From Bacillota bacterium (GTDB lineage: Bacteria; Bacillota; UBA4882; UBA8346): a stretch of DNA of 64,000 nt. This document shows, one piece after another, positions 3,977 to 54,560 of the stretch. The stretch spans positions 195,771-259,770 of the forward strand of contig JAKOTQ010000096.1 in the NCBI GenBank assembly GCA_029776205.1, written 5' to 3'. The first letter of the stretch is position 1. The number at the start of each line of letters is the position of its first letter. The position numbers and the translations under genes are program-made. The notes below the pieces were generated by a model that had not been told where the DNA came from, did not search any database, and saw only the letters and a list, made by a program, of their open reading frames with translations.

Positions 3977-4052
3977 ACCCGGATCCCAAACCCTCGATTC
4001 AGATCTAGGACCCGGTATCCGGATTGTACTTTTCACTGTGTGCTATGTACTC
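3977..4052 (-). repeat. Degenerate seven-base periodic array following spoVS
   Basis: Read on the minus strand from 4052, the sequence splits into heptads GAGTACA, TAGCACA, CAGTGAA, AAGTACA and so on for about eleven units. The first unit lies 16 bases after the spoVS stop. This is the most diverged of the arrays in the window; membership rests on periodicity and on the shared RRGTACW first unit. Confidence 0.45.
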
Positions 4053-12908: not shown

Positions 12909-12970
12909 TACTGTACATAGTTGACAGTGCATCGAGATTCCAGGCAACCCAGTACCTAGTACCATAAACC
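12909..12970. repeat. Short degenerate heptad array upstream of the 63-aa gene
   Basis: The plus strand divides into seven-base units ending CCCAGTA, CCTAGTA, CC. It is part of the 465-base gap 12885-13349, which also holds a terminator and the larger array after dtd; no gene is seen there. Confidence 0.45.
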
Positions 12971-13156: not shown

Positions 13157-13170
13157 GCAGGGTATCCTGC
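13157..13170 (-). terminator. Terminator downstream of the recJ-relA-dtd operon
   Basis: GCAGG-GTAT-CCTGC stem. On the minus strand it is followed by seven T (GCTTTTTTTATG). It lies 180 bases past the dtd stop, on the far side of the heptad array, so the array would be transcribed. Confidence 0.75.
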
Positions 13171-13176
13171 TTCTTG

Positions 13177-13341
13177 TCAGTTCAAGTTCTTAGTTCATAG
13201 TGCACAGATCACCGTTCATAGTACACAATCCTTTTTACTTATTAATTTATTAACCGTCCACTGTCCCAAATGTCAACTGAGATAAAGCTCCTGACTCCTC
13301 TCTTACTAAACCCAGCACCTAGTACCTAGTATTCAGTACCC
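13177..13341 (-). repeat. Degenerate seven-base periodic array following dtd
   Basis: On the minus strand, starting 8 bases after the dtd stop: GGGTACT, GAATACT, AGGTACT, AGGTGCT, GGGTTTA and onward to about 13255. A second block at 13177-13231 reads on the plus strand as TCAGTTC, AAGTTCT, TAGTTCA, TAGTGCA, CAGATCA, CCGTTCA, TAGTACA. About 23 bases of AT-rich sequence separate the two. The units resemble those at 29142-29378 and 54322-54560. Confidence 0.65.
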
Positions 13342-13349
13342 ATGGCTGT

Positions 13350-13796
13350 TCATTTTTCACTACTATCCAACCAAATCGTTACCGGTCCGTCATTGCATAA
13401 TTCCACTTCCATATGGGCTTGAAATATGCCTTTCTCCACATGAACTCCGCGGTTCCGCAAGGCTATACAGAATTGCTCATACATTTCAACCGCTTTATCC
13501 GGAGGAGCAGCTTCACCGAAATAGGGACGCCTTCCCTTCCGACAGTCAGCATATAAGGTAAACTGAGAGACGGCTAGGATCGGAAGACCCCGATCTATCA
13601 ATGATAAATTCAATTTTCCTGCTTCATCGGCAAAAATCCGTAAATGGACGATTTTTTCTGTCAGATAATTCAGATCTTCCAGGGTATCAGAATTTCCCAC
13701 GCCAAGAAGGACCAACAACCCCTCGTCAATCCGGCCGACAATTTCACCGGACACCCGAACCCGGGCCCAACTAACCCGCTGAATCAATGCTCTCAT
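13350..13796 (-). CDS. dtd: D-aminoacyl-tRNA deacylase
   Basis: Removes D-amino acids (and glycine mischarged on tRNA-Ala) from tRNA. It is 148 aa, the standard length. The N-terminus [15 protein letters not shown], the active-site loop [17 protein letters not shown] and the C-terminal [11 protein letters not shown] correspond to the family signatures, including the SQFTL and GP dipeptide motifs. The ATG at 13796 overlaps the relA stop (TAATG), giving tight coupling in a recJ-relA-dtd operon of a kind common in Bacillota. A heptad array follows the stop codon. Confidence 0.97.
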
Positions 13797-27980: not shown

Positions 27981-29378
<1,398 letters not shown>

Positions 29379-54285: not shown

Positions 54286-54321
54286 TTCAGTATGGGATAC
54301 AAAGGTTTTAAGGAGGAGGCA

Positions 54322-54560
54322 GTAGACAGGAGTCAGGAGTCGACCAAAAGAAGACAGAATACAGAAGTCAGAAGACAGAAGCAAACTAAAACTATACTTG
54401 CGCCTCGTGTCTTATATAAGAACTGTGAACTAGTGTACTTGACTTAGAGTTCAATACTTACAATTATCTCCTGGCTCCTACCTCCTAACTCCCATATCCC
54501 AGAACCCAGTACCTCGGACCTGAATTCTACTGTGAACTGTGCACTATGAACTGTGTACCC
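54322..54560 (-). repeat. Degenerate seven-base periodic array following folB
   Basis: The clearest array. On the minus strand from 54560, 6 bases after the folB stop: GGGTACA, CAGTTCA, TAGTGCA, CAGTTCA, CAGTAGA, ATTCAGG, TCCGAGG, TACTGGG, TTCTGGG, ATATGGG, AGTTAGG, AGGTAGG, AGCCAGG. After a weaker stretch, the far end reads on the plus strand GTAGACA, GGAGTCA, GGAGTCG and, further on, GAAGACA, GAATACA, GAAGTCA, GAAGACA. The seven-base phase is kept while units drift. Confidence 0.75.

What the first reader, a model, noticed from the sequence alone, without database searches (positions are those of the whole stretch)
54322..54560. Family of degenerate intergenic arrays with strict seven-base periodicity
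At 54322-54560, 29142-29378, 13177-13341, 12909-12970 and (weaker) 3977-4052 the sequence falls into heptads such as TGTGAAC/TGTGCAC/TATGAAC/TGTGTAC, CTCCTGG/CTCCTAC/CTCCTAA/CTCCCAT and GAAGACA/GAATACA/GAAGTCA/GAAGACA. Neighbouring units share 4-6 bases while the motif drifts along the array, as if copied by slippage with mutation. They encode nothing. The nearest known parallel I can name is the heptanucleotide short tandem repeats (STRR) of filamentous cyanobacteria. I know of no described equivalent in diderm spore-forming Bacillota.
Basis: partly seen in the sequence, partly recalled or inferred. Interest (0 to 1): 0.75.

Follow-up and report, generated by a model that had tools for sequence, protein, structure and literature searches.

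The report
Inward-facing seven-base repeat arrays
The gaps between genes of this bacterium hold many worn arrays of seven-base repeats that almost always face each other in the same direction and are rewritten quickly between species; the seven-base period is a known bacterial curiosity, but the strict facing rule, seen here also in unrelated bacteria, is a new clue to how such repeats arise.

Summary
Period 7 is the only excess period in the window's gaps and genome-wide (94 intergenic segments against 1-4 in shuffles). The arrays are not simple slippage tracts. They are mosaics of about seven heptad families (AGTnCAC, AGTTGAC, AGAAGAC, AGGAGTC, TGGGTAC, AGGCATG, AAAGGGA) arranged as inverted arms. 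"AG" heptads always come first and their complements second: 144 ordered pairs to 0 in two species. Arrays sit next to gene 3' ends and share linkers and long segments with arrays elsewhere in the genome. They usually occupy the same gaps in the sister species (82% identical genes), but with different content. The AG-first rule also holds for period-7 inverted arms in unrelated genomes (64:6 loci), not for ordinary inverted repeats (78:77). A small unselected follow-up was inconclusive. Period 7 and convergent heptads near gene ends were already reported (Xanthomonas, Nostoc; most abundant intergenic repeat in prokaryotes), so this is a new variant of a known kind. Neither reverse transcriptase nor REP-type transposase was found, so those generators are unlikely. 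Most likely mechanism (inferred): replication slippage in sevens plus fold-back and between-array template switching, tolerated downstream of genes.

The parts
54310..54381 (+). AG-first (left) arm of the main array: D heptads (AGGAGTC, AGTAGAC) at about 54314-54341, then C heptads (AGAAGAC, AGAATAC, AGAAGTC) at 54349-54381
54390..54445 (-). Inner, worn F-type (GCGCCTCGTGTC) and A-type (ACTGTGAACTAGTGTAC) heptads in CT orientation
   Evidence: sequence; module calls
54468..54560 (-). CT-second (right) arm: D- (CTCCTGGCTCCTACCTCCT), E- (CCCAGAACCCAGTACC), A- (ACTGTGAACTGTGCACTATGAACTGTGTAC), ending next to the 3' end of folB
29142..29378 (.). Composite heptad array between tgt and queA; it abuts the queA stop. 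The sister species has a different array in the same gap
13161..13369 (.). Composite heptad array (A+ then B-, D-, E-) in the convergent gap between Ku and D-aminoacyl-tRNA deacylase genes; the sister species has a different array in the same gap
12909..12970 (.). Short worn heptad stretch in the same convergent gap; individually weak (4 of 5000 shuffles at any lag), but its heptads belong to the genome's vocabulary
   Evidence: sequence
3977..4052 (.). Weak worn heptad stretch (7 of 5000 shuffles at any lag), E- and A-like units
   Evidence: sequence

Best explanation
These are inverted heptad-repeat arrays. Each has a left arm of AG-bearing heptads and a right arm of the complementary CT-bearing heptads, placed just downstream of genes. 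The most likely mechanism has three steps. (1) Tandem units are gained and lost in steps of seven by replication slippage (inferred). (2) A nascent strand carrying AG heptads folds back and copies itself, or copies across the hairpin arms, which makes and maintains the inverted CT arm (inferred from the polarity and from foldability). (3) Arrays exchange segments with other arrays through their shared heptads, so content is rewritten while period, polarity and gap are kept (shared segments and turnover are shown; the exchange step is inferred). Placement at gene 3' ends is probably tolerance and not a dedicated function. The bias towards AG might reflect the AG start of DnaG primers on CT templates (speculative).
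For: Strict phase: 383 of 419 same-family neighbours. Polarity: module runs (+ before -) 101:0 in G000 and 43:0 in G001. In other genomes and viral contigs the left arm is AG-rich in 64 of 70 loci, and AG:CT dinucleotides are 340:55, against 295:256 for non-periodic inverted repeats from the same loci. Inverted arms occur in 121 of 755 period-7 arrays but 7 of 412 period-6 arrays. Arrays with both arms fold better than shuffles (mean z -2.2; single-arm arrays -1.2). Segments of 130-204 bp at 70-85% identity, with linkers, are shared between loci; composite seeds with linkers give up to 35 hits of 60 bp or more, against 0-2 in reversed DNA. Of 17 orthologous gaps with an array in G001, 13 also have one in G000 (background 72 of 471 gaps), yet alignment scores are close to those of non-orthologous arrays. 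Arrays lie a median 17.5 bp from gene ends and 86.5 bp from starts; 14 of 66 are in convergent gaps, against 34 of 405 gaps overall. G000, 99.4% complete, has no RVT_1 and no Y1_Tnp.
Against: No event was caught in the act: the only same-genus genome is 82% identical, so slippage, fold-back and exchange are inferred. A pre-stated follow-up on stretches not chosen for arrays gave only 7 periodic arms (AG:CT 2:2) and a weak 21:10 trend for whole arrays. One control motif (ATGCGTN) leaned the other way, 1:3. Nothing explains why the unit is seven. The main window array folds no better than shuffles (z 0.06). G001 contigs were mostly picked because they hold arrays.
Confidence: 0.42

Rival explanations
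1. The arrays are worn copies of a non-autonomous palindromic mobile element (MITE- or REPIN-like) whose terminal inverted repeats happen to be heptad arrays; polarity is inherited from the founding element.
For: Dispersed copies with shared linkers and a recurrent hairpin tip GGAACGC..GCGTTCC; fixed polarity within the genus.
Against: No Y1_Tnp/RAYT in G000 or G001. No constant ends were seen in the alignment of the youngest copies. Same gaps are occupied in both species but with different content. Insertion of elements beside each other would give some CT-before-AG order; none was seen in 144 pairs.
Confidence: 0.25
2. The arms are selected as RNA or DNA hairpins, for example bidirectional terminators, Rho-loading C-rich tracts or mRNA 3'-end stabilisers.
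For: Position next to 3' ends, excess in convergent gaps; both-arm arrays fold better than shuffles.
Against: Single-arm arrays in tandem gaps show no orientation preference relative to transcription (10 AG-type, 8 CT-type in mRNA). Sequence and arm content are not conserved between orthologous gaps. Promoter avoidance alone predicts the placement.
Confidence: 0.17
3. Plain replication slippage with mutation, at each gap independently.
For: Unit of exactly seven, neighbouring units 4-6 of 7 identical, strict phase; published polymerase-footprint idea (Mrazek 2007, cited in PMC4679880 and PMC4692102).
Against: Independent slippage would give unrelated heptads at each locus and no inverted polarity; instead about 7 families and shared linker-containing segments recur with 144:0 polarity.
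Confidence: 0.1
4. A templating reverse transcriptase (telomerase-like, DRT10-like) writes the heptads.
For: DRT10 makes tandem-repeat DNA from a short RNA template (9-nt repeats in Eco3DRT10, PMC12632851).
Against: No RVT_1 match in G000 (99.4% complete) or G001; the units are degenerate and of several families.
Confidence: 0.02

Closest known systems
GGGAATC heptamer repeats of Xanthomonas and GGGGA(C/T)T of Nostoc (PMC4692102)
   Same: Exact period 7, intergenic, close to the upstream gene's end (28 versus 160 nt in Xanthomonas), few in divergent gaps, two arrays in convergent orientation close together (70 and 75 cases), same gaps occupied in sister species with differing length and sequence.
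   Different: There one G-rich motif that forms G-quadruplexes and near-identical units; here about seven motif families, heavy degeneracy, composite mosaics, no quadruplex requirement, and a different phylum.
Long heptanucleotide SSRs and STRR of cyanobacteria; heptamers in the SPADE survey (PMC6344855)
   Same: Unit of seven, intergenic, widespread, function unknown.
   Different: Those surveys describe periodic tandem repeats; inverted composite architecture and a general polarity rule are not described in the text read.
TAACTGA direct repeats of Beggiatoaceae, cyanobacteria and Bacteroidetes (PMC4679880)
   Same: Heptamer unit containing ACTG, intergenic.
   Different: Single motif, 2-6 copies per set in the genome described, mostly just upstream of start codons, one indirect repeat beside 169 direct sets.
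REP/BIME/REPIN elements
   Same: Dispersed extragenic palindromic repeats near gene ends, mosaic arrangement.
   Different: No RAYT transposase; heptad arms and not a 20-40 bp tagged palindrome.
DRT10 tandem-repeat synthesis (PMC12632851)
   Same: Produces short tandem repeats.
   Different: 9-nt units in the case read, reverse transcriptase required; none found here.

Membership tests
Heptameric intergenic simple sequence repeats (LSSR/STRR) | Tandem unit of exactly seven bases in excess of other periods | tested here: met
   94 lag-7 intergenic segments against 2-12 at other lags (53 at lag 14) and 1-4 in shuffles
Heptameric intergenic simple sequence repeats (LSSR/STRR) | Intergenic location | tested here: met
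   5% of array bases coding, genome 86% coding
Heptameric intergenic simple sequence repeats (LSSR/STRR) | Long runs of identical or near-identical units | tested here: not met
   Lag-7 identity about 0.5; Tandem Repeats Finder reports at most 6.4 period-7 copies at 71% match in the window
Xanthomonas-type GGGAATC arrays | Neighbouring arrays in convergent orientation | tested here: met
   144:0 AG-before-CT pairs in G000 and G001; published as convergent in PMC4692102
Xanthomonas-type GGGAATC arrays | Four G-tracts able to form a quadruplex | tested here: not met
   The right arm of the main array has three C3 tracts and the left arm has no G3 tract (sequence); only E-type (TGGGTAC) runs elsewhere could qualify
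REP/REPIN | RAYT (Y1_Tnp) transposase in the genome | tested here: not met
   0 matches in G000 and G001, present in several relatives
MITE | Target-site duplications and clean empty sites | tested here: inconclusive
   Only an 82% identical relative is available; gaps are not alignable
Reverse-transcriptase-templated repeats (DRT10, telomerase-like) | Reverse transcriptase gene | tested here: not met
   0 RVT_1 matches in G000 and G001

The most novel reading that the evidence does not exclude
Inverted heptad arrays of unrelated bacteria obey one strand rule, AG heptads on the 5' arm and CT on the 3' arm, because they are by-products of one conserved replication step, such as primer initiation on CT templates by DnaG followed by fold-back of the nascent fragment. 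The unit of seven and the polarity would then be fingerprints of that step.
Probability: 0.17. Interest if true: 0.82.

Novelty: new variant of a known kind. Interest (0 to 1): 0.55.

Why it matters
Heptamers were reported as the commonest intergenic tandem repeat in prokaryotes, with no explanation of the period (PMC6344855). A polarity rule absent from ordinary inverted repeats in the same DNA, together with fast rewriting at fixed gaps, gives that open question testable handles: any explanation must now account for the AG-first order, the exchange of segments between loci, and their persistence in a genome without reverse transcriptase or REP transposase.

Tried and rejected
(1) A universal or horizontally shared heptad vocabulary. 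The A motif is found in at least 120 stretches across many phyla, but in viral contigs A, B and D motifs give 13, 31 and 45 hits against 55, 22, 29 and 24 for anagram controls, so the sharing is what generic heptad abundance predicts. In the phylum only 1 of 398 genomes has the triple A pattern. (2) Loss of SbcCD as a precondition: true SbcD is missing in G000 and G001 and present in several family members, but also present in array-bearing G009, G046, G060 and 8 of 39 other array-bearing genomes. (3) NHEJ Ku as a generator: in 10 of 40 array-bearing genomes only. (4) RAYT and reverse transcriptase: absent. (5) G/C or purine skew as the general discriminator of arms: halves of arrays from other phyla did not separate clearly by GC skew (88:65); the AG dinucleotide is the better discriminator. 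(6) Rho or terminator orientation test: 10 versus 8, no preference. (7) Known RNA families in the window: none.

Full report
Observation. The reported intervals are real. Lag-7 identity is 0.46-0.50 against 0.25-0.27 in shuffles, and no shuffle of 5000 reaches it at lag 7; 12909-12970 and 3977-4052 are individually weak once other lags are allowed. Across the window lag 7 is the only lag with a real excess of repetitive 60-base windows. I took 1.2 Mb of the 2.73 Mb host genome as stretches. Its 166 kb of intergenic DNA holds 94 period-7 segments, against 1-4 in ten dinucleotide-shuffled sets, and 72 of 471 gaps of at least 100 bp carry one.

Anatomy. Units fall into about seven heptad families: A AGTnCAC, B AGTTGAC/AGTTTAC, C AGAAGAC/AGAATAC, D AGGAGTC, E TGGGTAC, F AGGCATG, G AAAGGGA. 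Units of one family are in phase in 383 of 419 neighbouring pairs, and several family changes keep the register (D-C, C-D, A-B). The main array reads D+ C+, then F- A-, then D- E- A-.

Polarity. Taking the AG strand as plus, runs of two or more heptads are always plus before minus: 78:0 pairs in 27 arrays and, with arrays merged over wider gaps, 101:0 in G000 and 43:0 in the same-genus genome G001. The families were named by eye, but each family occurs in both orientations, and a choice of seven signs cannot produce this result. Polarity is independent of which strand is read, because the reverse complement of plus-minus is plus-minus.

Generality of polarity. In loci from unrelated genomes and viral contigs, period-7 inverted arms have AG on the left in 64 loci and CT on the left in 6, including 18:4 in loci fetched with anagram control motifs. 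Non-periodic inverted repeats from the same loci show none (AG:CT 295:256; loci 78:77), while periodic ones show 340:55. Inverted arms are common only at period 7 (121 of 755; period 6: 7 of 412; period 8: 8 of 96). A follow-up stated beforehand, on stretches not chosen for arrays, was too small: 7 arms, 2:2, and 21:10 for whole arrays. The rule therefore needs an unbiased survey. Published Xanthomonas arrays are also convergent.

Dispersal and turnover. Arrays share segments of up to 204 bp at 70-85% identity with linkers that are not heptads. Linker-containing composite seeds recover up to 35 hits of 60 bp or more, against 0-2 in reversed sequence. Between G000 and G001 (genes about 82% identical), 13 orthologous gaps carry arrays in both, 4 only in G001 and 3 only in G000. 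G001 contigs were mostly chosen for having arrays, but 13 of 17 still exceeds the 15% background. Content is largely unrelated: orthologous local alignment scores average 28 against 22 for unrelated pairs. At the main locus G001 keeps only a short remnant.

Context. Array edges lie a median 17.5 bp from gene 3' ends and 86.5 bp from starts; convergent gaps are over-represented (14 of 66 against 34 of 405) and divergent ones under-represented (6 of 66 against 82 of 405). Gene calls here are my own ORF-based predictions. In the window, arrays abut folB, queA, and the convergent pair Ku and D-aminoacyl-tRNA deacylase. Both-arm arrays fold better than shuffles (mean z -2.2), single-arm arrays less (-1.2), although the main window array does not.

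Mechanism. Shown: period, phase, polarity, dispersal of segments, turnover at fixed gaps, and absence of detectable reverse transcriptase and RAYT in a 99.4% complete genome. Inferred: slippage in sevens, fold-back or arm-to-arm template switching as the source of the inverted arm, and exchange between arrays. Speculative: that AG reflects primase initiation (from general knowledge that bacterial DnaG primers commonly start with AG on CT templates; not tested here). SbcCD loss and Ku were considered and do not track with arrays in general.

Known or new. Heptamer repeats were reported as the most abundant tandem repeats in prokaryotic intergenic DNA, function unknown (PMC6344855), and the Xanthomonas and Nostoc arrays share placement, convergent pairs and gap-conserved variability (PMC4692102). 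What I did not find described, in the open library searched, is the composite multi-family architecture, the strict polarity with its control, and the cross-phylum AG-first tendency. I therefore rate it a new variant of a known kind, with a polarity rule worth an unbiased test.

Noticed in passing
L284:8648-9237: A 590 bp array of GTTCCGGGTTCCGCG-type heptads in a same-family genome (G009), with a different vocabulary from the window's genome.
   Followed up: partly
L288:10359-10478 and L288:13881-14002: Two near-copies 3.5 kb apart in another family (G060) with CAGTACTCAGTACT and ACTGAGTACTGGGT arms around a shared loop AAAAAACCGGGAAACCAAAGCCC: inverted heptad arms in CAG-first order.
   Followed up: partly
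L260:13382-13738: The youngest-looking array in the sister species has a central hairpin tip GGAACGCTAACGCGTTCC that recurs at other loci; it folds strongly (z -3.55).
   Followed up: partly
window:11818-12687: A bacterial Ku gene lies beside two of the arrays; true SbcD is not detected in this genome or its sister although most near-complete relatives in the family have it.
   Followed up: yes
L361-L382: Arrays fetched with the control motif ATGCGTN leaned to the opposite polarity (1:3); too few to judge.
   Followed up: no
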